A stretch of DNA of 34,831 nucleotides, taken from the NCBI GenBank assembly GCA_021801465.1, contig JAJYXY010000091.1, positions 1-34,831 on the forward strand. The letters are read 5' to 3'. The notes under the pieces were generated by a model. The model searched no databases, was not told the origin of the DNA, and was given only the letters and a program-made list of their open reading frames with translations. This document shows, one piece after another, positions 9,115 to 26,802 of this stretch. Both the position numbers and the translations under genes were made by a program. Every line of letters starts with the position of its first letter. Positions within the stretch are counted from its first letter, which is position 1. The DNA comes from Pseudomonadota bacterium (lineage in GTDB: Bacteria > Pseudomonadota > Alphaproteobacteria > Acetobacterales > Acetobacteraceae).

Positions 9115-10904
9115 GCGAGGCGACGGCGGCACAGCCCCGCATCGAGGACTATGCCATGATCGGTGATGGCCATAGTGCCGCGCTGGTCAACCGCACAGGG
9201 TCCGTGGATTGGCTGTGTTGGCCGCGTTTCGACAGCCCCGCCTGTTTCGCCGCCCTTCTCGGCGGGCGCAATCACGGTCGCTGGCTGATCGCACCGAAGG
9301 GAGCGGTGCACACCATCAGCCGCGCCTATCGCGGCAGCTCGCTCGTCTTGGAGACGGTGTTCACGACCGAAGACGGCGAGGTCGCACTCATCGATTTCAT
9401 GCCGCCGAATGGCGCCTCCTCCTCGGTCATCCGTCTCGTCGCCGGGCGTTCAGGGCGGGTTACCATGCGCCTCGATCTCACGCTGCGCTTCGATTACGGC
9501 ACCACCATCCCCTGGGTGACCCGCCTTTCCGATGGCAATGGCATCCGCGCGATCGCCGGCCCCGACATGGTGGTGTTGCGCACACCCATCACCTTACTCG
9601 GCCAAAATCTCGCGACCATTGCCGAGTTCGAGATCGCCGCCGGCGAGACCATCCCCTTCACCCTCACCCATTTCGCCTCGCATGTCGCGCCCGACCCGCC
9701 GCTCGACCCGCTCCACGCCCTCGCCACGACCGAGCAATTCTGGGCCGAGTGGTCCGGGCGCTGCAGCTGCGACGAGCGTTATCGCGAGCCGGTTCTTCGC
9801 TCGCTGATCACCCTGAAAGCGCTGATCTACACGCCAACCGGCGGCATCGTCGCAGCACCTACGACCTCGCTTCCCGAACAATGGGGCGGGCCGCGCAACT
9901 GGGATTATCGCTATTGCTGGCTGCGCGATGCGACACTGACCCTCGATGCGCTGATGGCGGCGGGGTACTATGACGAGGCGGAGGCGTGGCGCAACTGGCT
10001 GCATCGGGCGATCGCCGGCAGCCCGGCGCAGGTGCAAATCATGTACGGCCTCGCTGGCGAGCGCCGGCTCGCGGAATGGGAGGCGACGTGGCTGCCCGGC
10101 TTTGCTGGCTCGCGCCCGGTTCGGATCGGCAATGCCGCCTCGGATCAGCTTCAGCTCGACGTCTATGGCGAGGTCATGGATTCGGCCCATACCGCGCGGC
10201 GGGGTGGCCTTGGGGCGGCGCGCGATTCCTGGCCGATGCAGCGCAGATTGCTCGAACATCTCGCGCGGATCTGGGATCGCCCGGACGAAGGATTATGGGA
10301 AGTCCGCGGCGGGCGGCGGCATTTCACCTTTTCCAAAGTGATGGCCTGGGTCGCCTTCGACCGCGCGATCAAGGATGCCGAGACCTATCATCTCGACGCG
10401 CCGCTCGAACGCTGGCGGGCGTTGCGCGATCACATCCACGCGACCATCTGCCGGGAAGGCGTCGATCCCGAGCGCCAATGTTTCGTCCAAAGCTTTGGCG
10501 CGCGTGAGCTCGATGCCAGTCTTCTGCTCATCCCGCTGGTCGGGTTTCTGCCGCCCGAAGATCCGCGCGTGCGCGCGACCATCGCCGCGATCGAGCAGGA
10601 TTTGATGGAGGACGGGCTGGTGCTGCGCTATCGCACCGAGGCGGGAACCGATGGCTTGCCGCCGGGCGAGGGGGCGTTTCTCGCGTGCAGCTTCTGGCTC
10701 GTCGATAATCTCGTCCTGCAAGGGCGCCGCGCCGAGGCAGAGGCTCTCTTCGCGCGGCTACTCGATTTGCGTAACGATGTCGGCTTGCTCGCCGAGGAGT
10801 ATGATCCGCATGCCCGGCGCCAGCTCGGCAATTTTCCGCAAGCTTTTTCGCATCTCGCCCTCGTCCGCGCGGCGCTGACCCTGGCCGCTGACCCTGGCCG
10901 CTGA
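9111..10904 (+). CDS. Glycoside hydrolase family 15 protein (glucoamylase/trehalase-like)
   Basis: IEDYAMIGDGHSAALVNRTGSVDWLCWPRFDSPACFAALLGG, EQWGGPRNWDYRYCWLRDATLTLDALMAAGY, PSLPEQWGG-like core; ATG overlaps cupin stop (ATGA). Confidence 0.92.
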   Translation: MSEATAAQPRIEDYAMIGDGHSAALVNRTGSVDWLCWPRFDSPACFAALLGGRNHGRWLIAPKGAVHTISRAYRGSSLVLETVFTTEDGEVALIDFMPPNGASSSVIRLVAGRSGRVTMRLDLTLRFDYGTTIPWVTRLSDGNGIRAIAGPDMVVLRTPITLLGQNLATIAEFEIAAGETIPFTLTHFASHVAPDPPLDPLHALATTEQFWAEWSGRCSCDERYREPVLRSLITLKALIYTPTGGIVAAPTTSLPEQWGGPRNWDYRYCWLRDATLTLDALMAAGYYDEAEAWRNWLHRAIAGSPAQVQIMYGLAGERRLAEWEATWLPGFAGSRPVRIGNAASDQLQLDVYGEVMDSAHTARRGGLGAARDSWPMQRRLLEHLARIWDRPDEGLWEVRGGRRHFTFSKVMAWVAFDRAIKDAETYHLDAPLERWRALRDHIHATICREGVDPERQCFVQSFGARELDASLLLIPLVGFLPPEDPRVRATIAAIEQDLMEDGLVLRYRTEAGTDGLPPGEGAFLACSFWLVDNLVLQGRRAEAEALFARLLDLRNDVGLLAEEYDPHARRQLGNFPQAFSHLALVRAALTLAADPGR

Positions 10905-10951
10905 CCCTGGCCGCTGACCCTGGCCGCTGACCCTGGCCGCCTACCCTGGCC
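10874..10951. repeat. 13-bp tandem repeat (GCTGACCCTGGCC), five perfect copies plus one degenerate copy
   Basis: Units at 10874, 10887, 10900, 10913, 10926; degenerate unit gcctaccctggcc at 10939-10951. The GH15 stop codon lies inside the array. Confidence 0.97.
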
Positions 10952-11016
10952 GCCGAACCGGTAAGTAACGCGGTGAACAAGGCGTAGACGCGCAGCTTTG
11001 CGACGCCGCGCGGCGA

Positions 11017-15315: not shown

Positions 15316-16245
15316 TCATATGATCGCATCCAAGGAAGCGCTCATGCGCGGGGCATCCCGGGTGCGACAGGCAATGATCTCAGCCGCGAGCCGCCCGGCA
15401 CTCTCGATCGGCGTCTCGGCGCTGGTATCGATGGTGAGATCGGCTTTGGCGTAAAGTGGCGTTCGCGCCTCGAGAATGGCGTGGAGATCGTCCATCGCCC
15501 GGGTAAGCTCGCTCATCGGGCGGAAATCGCCTTGGGCGATCACCCGCTGCATGTGAAGCCGCGGCGTCGCGCGCACCCAAACCGTCAGGCAATGGCGCAG
15601 AAGGAGCTCGAACGTCGCCGGTTCAGTCACCAAACTGCCGCCGGTCGCGATCACCAGCGCCTCGTTGCTCGCGATCAAGCGGGTGAGTGCGCGCAGTTCC
15701 AGCCGACGATAGCCGGCCTGGCCGTTTTGATCGAAAATCTCGCCAAGGCTCGCCCCAGCCTCTTGCTCGATTTCCCGCCCGAGTTCGACAAAGCGCGCCC
15801 CGAGCCGTGCCGCGAGCAACGGCCCGAGCGTCGATTTGCCGCCGCCGCGCAAGCCGATCAGCGCCACCCGCATGGTCCGCAACGGCGCGGCCAGGCGCGG
15901 AAAATGCTGCGCGATCAGCCGCCGCGCGACAGCAAAATCCTCGGCGTCAAGCCCCGAGAGCATCTGCTCGAGAAGAACGAACTCGAGATCCCGCGCCTCG
16001 CGTTCGGTAAGCAGAAATCCGATATCGGTCGCCAGCGCTTCGGCAATGCGCCGGAGCAACAGAATTGATACATTACCCTCCCCGCTCTCGATCTGCGCGA
16101 TATAGCGCTCCGAGACGCGGGCGCGGCGCGCGAGCAAGCGGCGGGTCATGCCACGCTCGGCGCGCCGCCGGCGCAGCCGCGCGCCGACCCCTGCGAGATA
16201 GGCGCGTTGCGCCGCGCTCGGATCAGACGGCGGGCTTTGCGTCAC
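15316..16245 (-). CDS. HTH (XRE) - shikimate kinase-like fusion regulator (BzdR/BoxR architecture)
   Basis: N-terminal HTH ([39 protein letters not shown]) fused to a P-loop shikimate kinase-like domain ([34 protein letters not shown]). GTG start overlaps tyrS stop. Confidence 0.88.
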
Positions 16246-17486
16246 ACCGGCTGCACCAGCCGATGCTGCTTGCGCCCAGCCGAGAGCTTGATCACGCCCT
16301 CCCTGAGATCGTCGCGCGTCAAGGCCCGCGCCTCATCGGTAATCACGGCGTCGTTGACCCGCGCGCCACCGCCCCGGATCAGCCGCCGCGCCTCGCCATT
16401 GCTCGCCGCAAGCCCGGCCGCGACGAAAAGCTGAAATACTGGCACGCCGCGGGCAAGATCGGCGGCGGGGATTGCGACACGCGGCAAATCCTCGGCGAGC
16501 CCGCCCGCGCCGAAAACCTGCCCCGCCGCGCGCGCCGCCGCCTCGGCCGCGTCCCGCCCATGCGCGAGCGAAGTCGCCTCGGTGGCCAGCACGATCTTTG
16601 CCTCGTTGATCTCGGCATCGCGCAAGGCCTCGAGACGCGCGATCTCGGTGAGCGGCAGATCGGTAAAGAGGCGCAAGAACCGCCCGACATCGGCATCCTC
16701 GGCATTGCGCCAGAATTGCCAGTAATCGAACGGCGCCAGCCGCTCGGCGGTGAGCCAGATCGCGCCGCGTGCCGTCTTGCCCATCTTCGCGCCCGAAGCC
16801 GTCGTGATCAGCGGCGAGGTGAGGCCGAACACCGTCTTGCCCTCGGTGCGGCGCACCAGCTCCATCCCGGCGACGATATTGCCCCATTGATCCGATCCGC
16901 CGCACTGCAGAACTACGCCGTGGCGGCGATGAAGCTCGCGGAAATCATAGCTCTGGAGGATCATGTAATTGAATTCGAGGAAGGTCAGCGGCTGCTCGCG
17001 CTCGAGCCGCAGCCGCACGGCATCGAAGCCGAGCATGCGGTTGATGGTAAAATGTGTGCCCACCTCGCGGAGCAACGCAATATAGCCGAGGGCATCGAGC
17101 CAGTCGGCGTTGTTGACCACCATCGCCTCGCCCGGGCGGTCGCCAAAGCGCAGAAACGGGTCGAAGACGCGGCGGATGCCGGCCATATTCGCGGCGATCT
17201 GATCATCCGACAGCAATTGCCGCGCCTCGTCTTTGCCGGAAGGATCGCCGATCCGGCTGGTGCCACCGCCGAGCAGCACCACCGGCCGGTGGCCGTGGCG
17301 CTGCAGCAAGCGCAGCAGCATGATCTGCACCAGGCTCCCGACATGGAGACTATCGGCGGTACAATCGAAGCCGATATAAGCGGCGATCGGCCCGGCTTCG
17401 AGCCGCGCATCCAGCGCTTCGAGGTCGGTGCATTGAAACACGAAGCCACGGGCGATGGCTTCGGTGAGAAAGGCGCTACGCGGCAT
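16242..17486 (-). CDS. tyrS: Tyrosyl-tRNA synthetase
   Basis: [73 protein letters not shown]-terminal S4-like domain. Start ATG at 17486; the 18464 start in the ORF track is not credible. Confidence 0.94.
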
Positions 17487-17523
17487 GATCGTTCGCTTCG
17501 TCGTTGATGGGGTAAGAATATTT

Positions 17524-17559
17524 CTTCTTTTTCTGAAGAAAAAGAAGCAAAAAGACTTT
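17524..17559. repeat. Dispersed AT-rich hairpin repeat, type A copy 1
   Basis: cttctttttc-tgaa-gaaaaagaag (10-bp perfect stem) followed by caaaaagacttt. The 36 bp are identical, in inverse orientation, to 26767-26802. Confidence 0.9.
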
Positions 17560-17653
17560 CTTCCCGTTCTTGCGGCGCCGCAAGCCGGATCCGAGCGGGC
17601 CGCCTCGGCGTGGGCAGCACCGCAGGCACTACCCAATGGAAAAAGTTTTTTTG

Positions 17654-17677
17654 GTTCTTTTTTTTCAAAAAAAGAAC
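17654..17677. repeat. AT-rich hairpin, type B copy 1
   Basis: gttcttttttt-tc-aaaaaaagaac perfect inverted repeat; related to 28521-28543. Confidence 0.8.
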
Positions 17678-17729
17678 AATTCTCTCCGTCGATGTTGATA
17701 CTCTCTAACACAAGCGGCGGAAAGACCAA

Positions 17730-18821
17730 ATGTGGCGGGTGATCGGGCTGATGAGTGGCACCTCGCTCGACGGGGTCGATGCCGCGCTGGTCGAAACCGA
17801 TGGGATGCGCGTCGGAAGCTTCGGCTCCACCATTACGCTGCCCTATCCGCCGGCGCTGCGCGCAGCACTCCGCGTCCTCTTGACGCGCGCGCCGCATCTC
17901 CGCGCTGATGATCCCGCGCTCCAAGCCGCCGAGGCCGAACTCACCGCCCGCCACGCCGACGCGGTCGCGGCACTCGGCACGAAAGCCGACGTGATCGGCT
18001 TTCACGGCCAGACCATCCTGCACGACCCGCAAGCCCGCCGCACCTGGCAGATCGGCGATGCCGCGGCTCTGTCGCGCGCAACGGGGCTTGGCGTGGTCTT
18101 CGACTTCCGGAGCCGCGATGTCGCCGCCGGCGGCGAAGGCGCACCGCTCGTTCCTGTCTTCCATGCCGCCCTCGCGGCGGGCCTGCCGCGCCCAGTCGCG
18201 ATCCTCAATATCGGCGGCGTCGCCAATGTCACGTGGATCGGGGAGCGAGACGATCTTCTTGCCTGTGATACCGGGCCCGGCAACGGCCCCCTCGATGACT
18301 GGCTCATGCGCCACACTGGCGCCCCCTTCGACACCGAGGGCGCCTTGGCGCGCGCGGGACGGCCCGACGACGCGGTGCTCGCGCGCCTGCTCGCCGATCC
18401 CTATTTCCGCCGCGCGGCGCCGAAATCGCTCGACCGGCTGGCCTTTGCCGGCGCCTTGGCGCAAAGCGGGATCGATGCTTTATCCCCGGCCGATGGCGCT
18501 GCGACCTTGGTTGCCTTTCTCGCCGCTGCGATCGCCCTGACCCCTCTGCCGGCGCCACCACGGCGCTGGCTCGTTGCCGGCGGCGGGCGGCATAATCCGG
18601 CGATCATGGCGGCGCTGCGCGAGCGCCTCGCAGCACCGGTGGACGCGGTCGAGGCGCTTGGCTGGAACGGCGACGCGCTAGAGGCGCAATGCTTCGCCTT
18701 CCTCGCCGCCCGCCACCTCGCTGATCTGCCGATCAGTTTCCCAGGAACCACCGGGGTACCGAGACCAATGCGGGGCGGGCGATTTATGCATGCCAAAGAC
18801 GAAGGAAAAACCCTTTTTTGA
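17730..18821 (+). CDS. anmK: Anhydro-N-acetylmuramic acid kinase
   Basis: [62 protein letters not shown]. Confidence 0.95.
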
Positions 18822-24797: not shown

Positions 24798-24935
24798 CTC
24801 GCCTCCTTCGCTCTGAGACGGGTGGCTTCGGCCCGCCCGGGCGGGCAATGCACCGCGCTCGTATTTTTCCGTATCGGGGTCGCGCGCCGTATCAGAGGCC
24901 GGCCACGGGTCGGGGCAAGTCAGAGGAACAACGCT

Positions 24936-26753
24936 GTGAGCGGCTCCAATTTTCTTGTTCTTCCGAATGAAAGCGGAACCCTCGATACCCTCACCGCGAC
25001 CCAGGATTATTTCGTCGTGGCGATCCGACAGGGGGCGACGCTCGATGTCGCCGCTGGTGGCGCGGCGAGCGTCGATCTGTTGTCCGTCCAACAAGGGGGT
25101 GTTCTGGAGGTCGCGGCGGGCGGCGTTGTCGATGCGAACCTGCTTGCCCTTCAGCAAGGCGGCGTTGGCACCAACCTCAGTTTATATCCCGCCGGTACCA
25201 TTCTTATCGATGGCGGCACGCTCGAGACGACCAATTTGGCGAGCATTGGCGGCGTCGTCGCCATCGAGAATGGCGGCGCGGCCGATCTGCGTCTCGCGCC
25301 CCCGACCGCAATCATCAACGGGGTCGCGCAGAATTCCGGCACGATCGACATTGCCGGCGCAAGTTCAGCGACCCTTGGCTACGCCTCTGGGATCACGCGC
25401 TTTGGCGGTCTCGTCAATTTCTCTGCCGCGGATGGCACTCCGGCGCCGGGCGGCACGGCGGTCGTTGACGATGTCATCGCCAATCTCGGCACCTTCGCTG
25501 ATTTCACGGCCGGCGACACGATCGACCTCAGCGGCTACGCCTCGGGCACCCGCTTCGCCGTCACCGCGTTGCCTCCCCCTTCCTTGCCGGCCTCGGTGCC
25601 GAGTGATCTCTCGACCCTCTATGCGCTCACCGATACGGCCGGCGGCGTTACCGCCACCATCGCGACGCTCGCGGTTATCGATGGCGCGAAGCCTCTGCTT
25701 AACGCCAACAATGACACGATCACCGCCTGTTTCGCTGCCGGGACGCGGATTCTCACGGTGCGTGGCGAGGTCGCCGTCGACGCTTTGCGGGTTGGCGATC
25801 TCGTCGCCACCTTCTCCGGCGCTGGCGCGGCGCTAAAACCCGTGCGTTGGATCGGCTATCGCCATGTCGATCTCACCGCCCATCCGACGCCAGAGAAAGT
25901 GCGCCCGGTGCGCATGATCGCCGGGTGTTTGGCGCCTGGTCTGCCGCACCGGGATTTGGTGCTGTCGCCAGGACACGCGCTTTGCATCGATGATCATCTG
26001 GTCGACGTCGAATGGCTGTTGAACGGCGTCACGGTGACGCAAGACATGACGGTCGATGCCGTCACCTATTATCATATCGAGCTCGATCAGCATGATCTCG
26101 TGCTCGCCGAGGGGGTATTTTCGGAAACCTATCTCGATACGGGCAATCGCGGGCAGTTCGTCAATGCTGGGGCGGCAATTGCACTGCATCCCGATTTTTT
26201 GCCGCACCAGGACAAATCGGTTGGCGCGTGCCGGCCATGGCTGACCGGTGGCCCGTTGCTCCGCGAGATCCGCGCCCGGCTGATCGCGGCGATCGAGGCG
26301 GATGGCTATCGGCTGACGGAACAAGCCGATCTTCATCTCGTGAGCGGTGGCTTGCCTCTCCGCGCAGAGCGTGTTGGCGAGGGCGTGGTGCGCTTTACGC
26401 TTCCCTCCCCGGCGCAAGAGTGCCGCCTTCGCTCGCGGGTTTGGATCCCGGGTGGGGTTGACGCGTCGAATGAGGATATGCGCCGCCTCGGTGTCAGGAT
26501 CCGGGCGTTGGCGGCGATCGGCCCGGCGGGGCGGCGCGCGATTGCCCTCGATGATCCTGCATTGCAGACAGGGTTTTATGGGCTGGAACGTTTCGGCGAT
26601 GACGCGTGGCGCTGGACCACCGGCGATGCCATGATCCCGGCAGTGCTTTTGGCGGATGCTGTCGCGTTGGAGCTGGAGATTGTCAGCACCGGCCTCTATT
26701 GGGATTTGCCAGAGGCCGAGGAATTCGAGGAACCCTATCTCCTCTCCGCCTAA
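24936..26753 (+). CDS. Hint-domain (Hedgehog/intein-like) protein with N-terminal repeat-rich domain
   Basis: ITACFAAGTRILTVRGEVAVDALRVGDLVATFSGAGAALKPVRWIGYR...RDLVLSPGHALCIDDHLVDVEWLLNG (Hint_2 type); N-terminus has repeated hydrophobic/Gly turns (GGVLEVAAGGVVDANLLALQQGG). GTG at 24936 follows agagga. Confidence 0.85.
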   Translation: MSGSNFLVLPNESGTLDTLTATQDYFVVAIRQGATLDVAAGGAASVDLLSVQQGGVLEVAAGGVVDANLLALQQGGVGTNLSLYPAGTILIDGGTLETTNLASIGGVVAIENGGAADLRLAPPTAIINGVAQNSGTIDIAGASSATLGYASGITRFGGLVNFSAADGTPAPGGTAVVDDVIANLGTFADFTAGDTIDLSGYASGTRFAVTALPPPSLPASVPSDLSTLYALTDTAGGVTATIATLAVIDGAKPLLNANNDTITACFAAGTRILTVRGEVAVDALRVGDLVATFSGAGAALKPVRWIGYRHVDLTAHPTPEKVRPVRMIAGCLAPGLPHRDLVLSPGHALCIDDHLVDVEWLLNGVTVTQDMTVDAVTYYHIELDQHDLVLAEGVFSETYLDTGNRGQFVNAGAAIALHPDFLPHQDKSVGACRPWLTGGPLLREIRARLIAAIEADGYRLTEQADLHLVSGGLPLRAERVGEGVVRFTLPSPAQECRLRSRVWIPGGVDASNEDMRRLGVRIRALAAIGPAGRRAIALDDPALQTGFYGLERFGDDAWRWTTGDAMIPAVLLADAVALELEIVSTGLYWDLPEAEEFEEPYLLSA

Positions 26754-26766
26754 CCCCTGAAATCAA

Positions 26767-26802
26767 AAAGTCTTTTTGCTTCTTTTTCTTCAGAAAAAGA
26801 AG
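26767..26802. repeat. Dispersed AT-rich hairpin repeat, type A copy 2 (inverse orientation)
   Basis: aaagtctttttgcttctttttcttcagaaaaagaag is the exact reverse complement of 17524-17559. Confidence 0.9.

What the first reader, a model, noticed from the sequence alone, without database searches (positions are those of the whole stretch)
17520..17681. Composite palindromic element in a divergent promoter region between tyrS and anmK
Seen: within the 243-bp gap between two divergent gene starts there is a type A hairpin (17524-17547), a perfect 16-bp palindrome cttgcggcgccgcaag (17569-17584), a GC-rich spacer, and a type B hairpin (17654-17677). Terminator-like hairpins are unexpected upstream of two divergent genes. 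Inference: a MITE/REP-like mobile or regulatory repeat, or a source of structured RNA.
Basis: partly seen in the sequence, partly recalled or inferred. Interest (0 to 1): 0.6.

Follow-up and report, generated by a model that had tools for sequence, protein, structure and literature searches.

The report
Mobile paired-hairpin repeat, Acetobacteraceae gene ends
The two hairpins between tyrS and anmK are the ends of one copy of a family-specific, multi-copy DNA repeat that normally sits just behind genes, spreads by insertion, and here has inserted into the short shared promoter region of two divergent genes; its ends carry a triple-helix-type symmetry that co-varies across hundreds of copies.

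Summary
Both hairpins lie where reported and are the two ends (A left, B right, facing outward) of a composite repeat of about 105-152 bp. The draft genome holds at least 28 A+B composites plus about 59 single ends. The copy inserted within its genus: relatives and one congener have 35-67-bp empty gaps, one congener keeps a full copy at the same spot, three keep only half. Other composites sit where a congener's genes are 9-10 bp apart. The repeat is confined to Acetobacteraceae (58/200 genomes; 0 of 237 others), with copy number from 0 to 1,209, varying even within genera. Normal sites are just after stop codons and between convergent genes; divergent gaps are strongly avoided, so this copy is atypical. 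No RAYT transposase, target duplication or autonomous partner was found. New here: a tract beside each hairpin equals the parallel complement of the stem's purine arm in 318/332 copies (shuffled mean 152), the signature of a potential intrastrand triplex. A role at gene ends (3'-end formation or attenuation) is inferred, not shown.

The parts
17524..17677 (.). Composite repeat: two outward-facing hairpin ends (A left, B right), imperfect inverted repeats of each other, around a variable core
   Evidence: 28 A+B composites in the draft genome; intact copy at the orthologous site in G003; empty site in G004 and other relatives
17524..17547 (-). End A hairpin, CTTCTTTTTCT-TC-AGAAAAAGAAG read on the minus strand
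17548..17559 (-). End A tag, AAAG-TCTTTTT-G on the minus strand; the tract TCTTTTT (17549-17555) is the parallel complement of the stem's AGAAAAA
17569..17584 (.).
   Evidence: absent from the other composites and from the G003 ortholog
17612..17634 (+). Remnant of the core GC hairpin (consensus GGGCAGTGCC-NNN-GGCACTGCCC), three pairs broken in this copy
   Evidence: alignment of composites; sequence
17642..17653 (+). End B tag, AAAG-TTTTTTT-G; seven T, matching seven A in the stem (six and six in the G003 ortholog)
17654..17677 (+). End B hairpin, GTTCTTTTTTT-TC-AAAAAAAGAAC
17510..17523 (-). Tail beyond end A (AAATATTCTTACCC on the minus strand); family consensus is T-rich at +4/+5
17678..17691 (+). 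Tail beyond end B (AATTCTCTCCGTCG); family consensus is T/pyrimidine-rich
17705..17712 (+). CTAACACA box upstream of anmK; a TTAGCACA-like box stands here in relatives; the element lies between it and tyrS
16242..17486 (-). tyrS, tyrosyl-tRNA synthetase
   Evidence: PF00579, E 1.9e-72
17730..18821 (+). anmK, anhydro-N-acetylmuramic acid kinase
   Evidence: PF03702, E 2.8e-83
26767..26802 (+). Second occurrence in the window: a single A end, 13 nt after the stop of the gene at 24822-26753

Best explanation
SHOWN: 17524-17677 is one copy of a non-coding, multi-copy composite repeat found only in part of the Acetobacteraceae, with two outward-facing hairpin ends (A and B, imperfect inverted repeats of each other) around a short core. 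It is present between tyrS and the conserved box upstream of anmK in this species and (whole) in G003, reduced to its A half in G001, G002 and G005, and absent in congener G004 and in other relatives. INFERRED: one insertion after the G004 split; the repeat spreads as a unit, like a MITE or BIME, through an unidentified mobiliser. Copies survive mainly right behind stop codons and between convergent genes, where promoters are spared. When transcribed there, the long stem, or the outward hairpin with its pyrimidine tail, most likely forms or protects mRNA 3' ends or partly terminates transcription. In the window it is an incidental insertion in a promoter region, where transcripts running outward to tyrS or anmK would meet a hairpin in their leader and may be attenuated. 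The match between tag and stem suggests each end can fold as a pyrimidine/purine intrastrand triplex (single-stranded DNA or RNA); this is inferred from covariation only.
For: Copies. Single long stem -61.4 kcal/mol, z -6.6 for the intact ortholog. Empty, full and half sites at tyrS-anmK. Composite insertions against G004: 243 vs 64, 180 vs 9, 177 vs 10, 148 vs 9 bp. Family restriction and bursts: 58/200 Acetobacteraceae, 0/237 others; 25 to 1,136 copies within one genus. Gene-end placement: G001 37/30/3 tandem/convergent/divergent vs 40.9/11.5/17.6 expected, p 6e-10; all 18 tandem composites here start 1-25 bp after a stop; annotated plasmid copies 4 and 6 bp behind stops. Tag-stem match 318/332 vs shuffled mean 152, length concordance p 8e-19.
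Against: No mobiliser, autonomous partner or target-site duplication found. 13 of 15 sites are shared with G001, so recent movement is slow in this pair. Single ends show no sense bias (12 sense, 21 antisense here; 10 and 12 in G001), which weakens the termination step. Hairpin stems are AT-rich. No expression data. The copies are related, so covariation counts are not independent.
Confidence: 0.72

Rival explanations
1. Ordinary intrinsic terminators with a lineage-standardised sequence, doubled in inverted orientation to serve convergent genes; the tyrS-anmK copy is a misplaced or attenuating terminator.
For: Hairpin followed by T-rich tail (T at +4/+5 in 92/90% of A ends, 77/68% of B ends); convergent gaps enriched (30 vs 11.5 expected) and elements 1-25 bp after stops; hairpins nearly invariant between species; a B end behind an ORF and a GC hairpin in a Microviridae genome.
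Against: Composites appear as 140-170-bp insertions in gaps of 9-10 bp between co-directional genes such as ybaB-recR; single ends are as often antisense as sense; 0 to 1,209 copies among relatives; the G108 tail is CTTCC-rich, not a T run.
Confidence: 0.2
2. A true REP/BIME family moved by a RAYT (Y1) transposase.
For: Short palindromes with a 5' tag, single or in inverted pairs, at gene 3' ends, in hundreds of copies.
Against: PF01797 absent from this draft genome and from G108, G205, G156, G025 and G084; the few hits elsewhere do not track copy number. No GTAG or CGTC tag; PMC3733652 reports CGTC repeats missing in Acetobacteraceae.
Confidence: 0.05
3. A regulatory element of the tyrS-anmK divergent promoter (attenuator or operator).
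For: Position in the leaders of both genes; hairpins intact.
Against: Absent from all other alphaproteobacterial tyrS-anmK gaps inspected, halved in three sister species, core hairpin degraded in the window copy, and more than 80 other copies lie at unrelated genes.
Confidence: 0.06
4. A DNA signal read by a protein, such as an uptake or chromosome-organisation sequence, co-opted at gene ends.
For: Very high copy in some genomes (1,209 in 4.3 Mb) and near-invariant hairpins beside changing flanks; uptake signals in Neisseria and Pasteurellaceae are used in terminators (PMC1852404).
Against: A 33-36-nt structured motif with covarying stem and tag, strong avoidance of divergent gaps, copy number falling to zero among congeners; uptake signals are about 9-11 nt (PMC1852404).
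Confidence: 0.07

Closest known systems
REP / BIME elements (RAYT-associated)
   Same: Short palindromes with a conserved tag on the 5' side, single or in inverted pairs, extragenic, at gene 3' ends, high copy, patchy among related species
   Different: No RAYT found, no GTAG/CGTC tag, AT-rich stem, tag co-varies with the stem, composite inserts as a unit with a lineage-specific core
Potential intrastrand triplex motifs (PIT / TM_ECO of E. coli, PMC4666352)
   Same: Three-tract hairpin-plus-third-strand layout, always intergenic, highly conserved, type A always paired with type B in inverted repeat
   Different: AT-rich with 6-7-nt tracts (TM_ECO is GC-rich, 9 nt), gene-end biased (TM_ECO was more often upstream of ORFs), found as clean insertions and in up to 1,209 copies; Acetobacteraceae not mentioned in that paper's main text
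MITEs
   Same: Short non-coding element with terminal inverted repeats of about 45 bp, folding as one stem, empty and filled sites, bursts of copies
   Different: No target-site duplication, no parent transposon found, single ends outnumber full elements
Uptake-signal terminators of Neisseria/Pasteurellaceae (PMC1852404)
   Same: A high-copy standard sequence in hairpins, enriched between convergent genes
   Different: There two signals form one hairpin; here each motif is a hairpin by itself and pairs face outward around a core

Membership tests
REP/BIME (RAYT-associated) | Y1/RAYT transposase in the genome | tested here: not met
   PF01797: 0 hits in the own draft and in G108, G205, G156, G025, G084; no relation to copy number
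REP/BIME (RAYT-associated) | GTAG or CGTC tag at one end | tested here: not met
   Tag is AAAG-X-G
REP/BIME (RAYT-associated) | Extragenic palindromes, single and in inverted pairs, many copies | tested here: met
MITE | Terminal inverted repeats, non-coding, under about 200 bp | tested here: met
MITE | Empty versus filled orthologous sites | tested here: met
MITE | Target-site duplication | tested here: not met
   51 pairs, flanks share no more than shuffled flanks (3.86 vs 3.88); a 2-3-nt duplication would be missed
MITE | Parent autonomous element or cognate transposase | tested here: inconclusive
   Wider outward pairs hold no recognisable transposase by eye, but only fetched stretches were examined
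Potential intrastrand triplex motif | Three tracts X, X-reversed, X-complement with short loops | tested here: met
   318 of 332 ends exact, shuffled mean 152, maximum 178; tracts of 6-7 nt are shorter than the 8-15 nt that paper kept for its comparison
Potential intrastrand triplex motif | Triplex formed in vitro | not testable with these tools
   Needs CD/NMR or chemical probing
Intrinsic terminator | Hairpin followed by a T tract | tested here: met
   T-rich tail from about +3 in this genome; C/T-rich tail in G108
Intrinsic terminator | Sense orientation downstream of genes | tested here: not met
   Single ends in tandem gaps: 12 sense vs 21 antisense here, 10 vs 12 in G001
Intrinsic terminator | RNA 3' ends mapped at the site | not testable with these tools
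   No expression data

The most novel reading that the evidence does not exclude
A mobile gene-end repeat whose ends are under selection to fold as a T/U-rich intrastrand triplex (third tract lying along the hairpin's purine arm), giving Acetobacteraceae a portable, orientation-independent module at mRNA 3' ends, spread by an unknown mobiliser to as many as 1,200 copies per genome.
Probability: 0.22. Interest if true: 0.8.

Novelty: new variant of a known kind. Interest (0 to 1): 0.55.

Why it matters
No paper in the held library contains the core sequences and no Rfam family matches at its cut-off, so this looks like an undescribed repeat family present in about a third of the Acetobacteraceae genera sampled. 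Its bursts among congeners, clean empty sites and lack of a known mobiliser make it a test case for how REP-like repeats spread without RAYT. The tag-stem covariation is a natural sequence argument that a bacterial repeat may be selected for a triple helix, and it can be tested directly. For genome readers: hairpins in a divergent promoter can be inserts rather than regulators.

Tried and rejected
Rfam at gathering and at loose threshold: nothing credible. Y1/RAYT association: rejected. Target-site duplication by flank matching against shuffles, 51 pairs: no signal. Autonomous element as wider outward pairs: the longest ORFs inside showed no recognisable transposase by eye. Literal sequence search of the literature: 0 papers. 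First gene calling without masking the elements mis-called tyrS across the element; replaced by masked calling. One script failed on syntax. Direct-repeat reading of the tag: all C-bearing variants fit it too, but only at varying offsets (1, 2, 4), while the mirror reading holds one fixed register. Erosion of the T tails facing tyrS and anmK in the window copy was looked for; it is only suggestive (A at +5 on the A side, otherwise within range) and is not claimed. Host genus name: not established; the named relatives found are mostly Acetobacteraceae MAGs with at most 77% identical TyrS.

Full report
OBSERVATION. The two hairpins are at 17524-17547 and 17654-17677. Read on the outward strand, both have the same plan: AAAG, a pyrimidine tract, G, hairpin. 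The motif is expected 0.00 times in shuffles of the window and found three times. The draft genome (2.8 Mb, 311 contigs, 87% complete) has 105 matches with up to two mismatches and none for the reversed control.

WHAT THE ELEMENT IS. From the fetched places I extracted 28 outward-facing pairs, every one A+B, and 59 single ends (15 A, 44 B). The pairs span 105-152 bp as scored. The alignment shows conserved ends, a variable spacer and a GC hairpin GGGCAGTGCC-NNN-GGCACTGCCC, sometimes nearer the A side. The A and B arms are imperfect inverted repeats of each other, so the whole copy folds as one long stem: -61.4 kcal/mol, z -6.6 for the intact copy of congener G003, and z -4.85 for the window copy as RNA.

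INSERTION AT tyrS-anmK. The divergent pair tyrS-anmK (Pfam PF00579 and PF03702) is old: most of 80 tyrS loci from Alphaproteobacteria have anmK next door. In ten Acetobacteraceae-type relatives the gap is 35-67 bp without the element. Inside the genus, G004 has 64 bp and no element. G003 has a complete copy of about 138 bp at the same place in a 212-bp gap. G001, G002 and G005 share a 108-bp gap with the A half and the start of the core, while the B half and the conserved CTAGCACA-like box near anmK are gone. The simplest history is one insertion after the G004 split, then partial deletion in one branch.

OTHER SITES. Of 15 sites testable against 1.6 Mb of G001, 13 are occupied in both, with hairpins nearly unchanged while spacer and flanks changed (one site that the script called empty holds both hairpins when read by eye). 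Against 735 kb of G004, all four testable composites are empty there: 243 vs 64 bp here, 180 vs 9 bp between ybaB and recR, 177 vs 10 bp behind a biotin carboxylase gene, and in G001 148 vs 9 bp between a nucleotidyltransferase gene and a dTDP-sugar epimerase gene. So the composite arrives as a unit, also between tightly spaced co-directional genes.

DISTRIBUTION. With up to 3 mismatches the B end occurs in 58 of 200 Acetobacteraceae genomes, 34 of 102 genera, and with up to 2 mismatches in none of 237 genomes of other alphaproteobacterial families. Copy number jumps within genera: 25, 434 and 1,136 in g74; 46, 0 and 45 in g67; 196, 121 and 1 in g120; 109 against 9 in this genus. G108 reaches 1,209. 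In G108 the pairs are B+B, the cores are not conserved and the tail is TGCTTCCTT-like, so the hairpin with its tag is the conserved unit and the core is lineage-specific. Two Pseudoroseomonas cervicalis plasmids carry full-length relatives (76% and 74%) 4 and 6 bp behind annotated stop codons, one of them exactly between convergent genes. Viral-contig records carry single and paired ends; some may be host DNA.

PLACEMENT. In G001, 70 elements fall 37/30/3 in tandem/convergent/divergent gaps against 40.9/11.5/17.6 expected from gaps of at least 60 bp (p = 6e-10; divergent depletion p = 4e-6). In this genome all 18 tandem composites start 1-25 bp after the upstream stop. The window copy is one of only two composites in a divergent gap here. 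Single ends show no sense bias in tandem gaps (12 sense and 21 antisense here; 10 and 12 in G001), which speaks against a simple one-way terminator. Tails are T/pyrimidine-rich.

TRIPLEX-TYPE SYMMETRY. Call the tag tract X. The motif reads AAAG-X-G-NTTC-X(reversed)-loop-X(complement)-GAAN'. Over 332 ends from several genomes, X equals the parallel complement of the stem's purine run exactly in 318; shuffling gives a mean of 152 and a maximum of 178. Tract length co-varies (7 with 7 twelve times, 5 with 5 five times; p = 8e-19), and C/G positions move together (TCTTTTT/AGAAAAA, TCTTTT/AGAAAA, TTCTTT/AAGAAA). At the tyrS-anmK site itself the B end is 6/6 in G003 and 7/7 in the window. The closing pair N-N' varies as a normal base pair (G-C, C-G, T-A). 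Copies are related, so these numbers are not independent events; still, independent mutation does not predict the pattern. It is the layout of potential intrastrand triplexes as defined for TM_ECO in E. coli, which also pairs type A with type B in inverted repeats (PMC4666352). Whether a triplex forms is untested; templated repair between the tracts could also keep them matched.

MECHANISM AND LIMITS. Shown: multi-copy element, insertion as a unit, gene-end placement, family restriction, tag-stem covariation. Inferred: spread by an unidentified mobiliser; effect on mRNA 3' ends or termination; attenuation of tyrS/anmK here. It is not a strict REP (no RAYT, no GTAG/CGTC tag) and not a classical MITE on every count (no target-site duplication, no parent found). 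Gene calls come from a simple codon-statistics script with elements masked; only the plasmid contexts rest on public annotation.

VERDICT. A real repeat family of a known general kind, undescribed in the library searched, with an unusual structural signature; its location between tyrS and anmK is an incidental insertion.

Noticed in passing
window 17705-17712 and relatives: A TTAGCACA/CTAGCACA-like box recurs in the tyrS-anmK divergent gap across Rhodospirillales-type relatives; it was lost with the B half of the element in G001, G002 and G005.
   Followed up: partly
L020 1420-1536: The only other composite in a divergent gap of this genome; its GC core hairpin is also degraded, like that of the window copy.
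   Followed up: no
L217 801-834 (Microviridae MG945182, UNVERIFIED, cattle blood): A 34-nt exact match to the B end stands in sense behind a small ORF and a long GC-rich inverted repeat, hinting at an Acetobacteraceae host or a borrowed terminator.
   Followed up: partly
G108 and G205: 1,209 and 1,136 copies in about 4.2-4.3 Mb, roughly one per 3.6 kb.
   Followed up: partly
window 10860-10963: Tandem repeat of CGCTGACCCTGGC (13-bp unit, about six copies) at a gene's 3' end.
   Followed up: no
window 15316-16245, minus strand: ORF that looks like a helix-turn-helix domain fused to a shikimate-kinase-like domain, as in BzdR/BoxR-type regulators (read from the translation, not tested).
   Followed up: no
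L251 4711-4783 and L253 4123-4197: Viral-contig records with A and B ends facing inward and nearly touching, the reverse of the usual arrangement.
   Followed up: no
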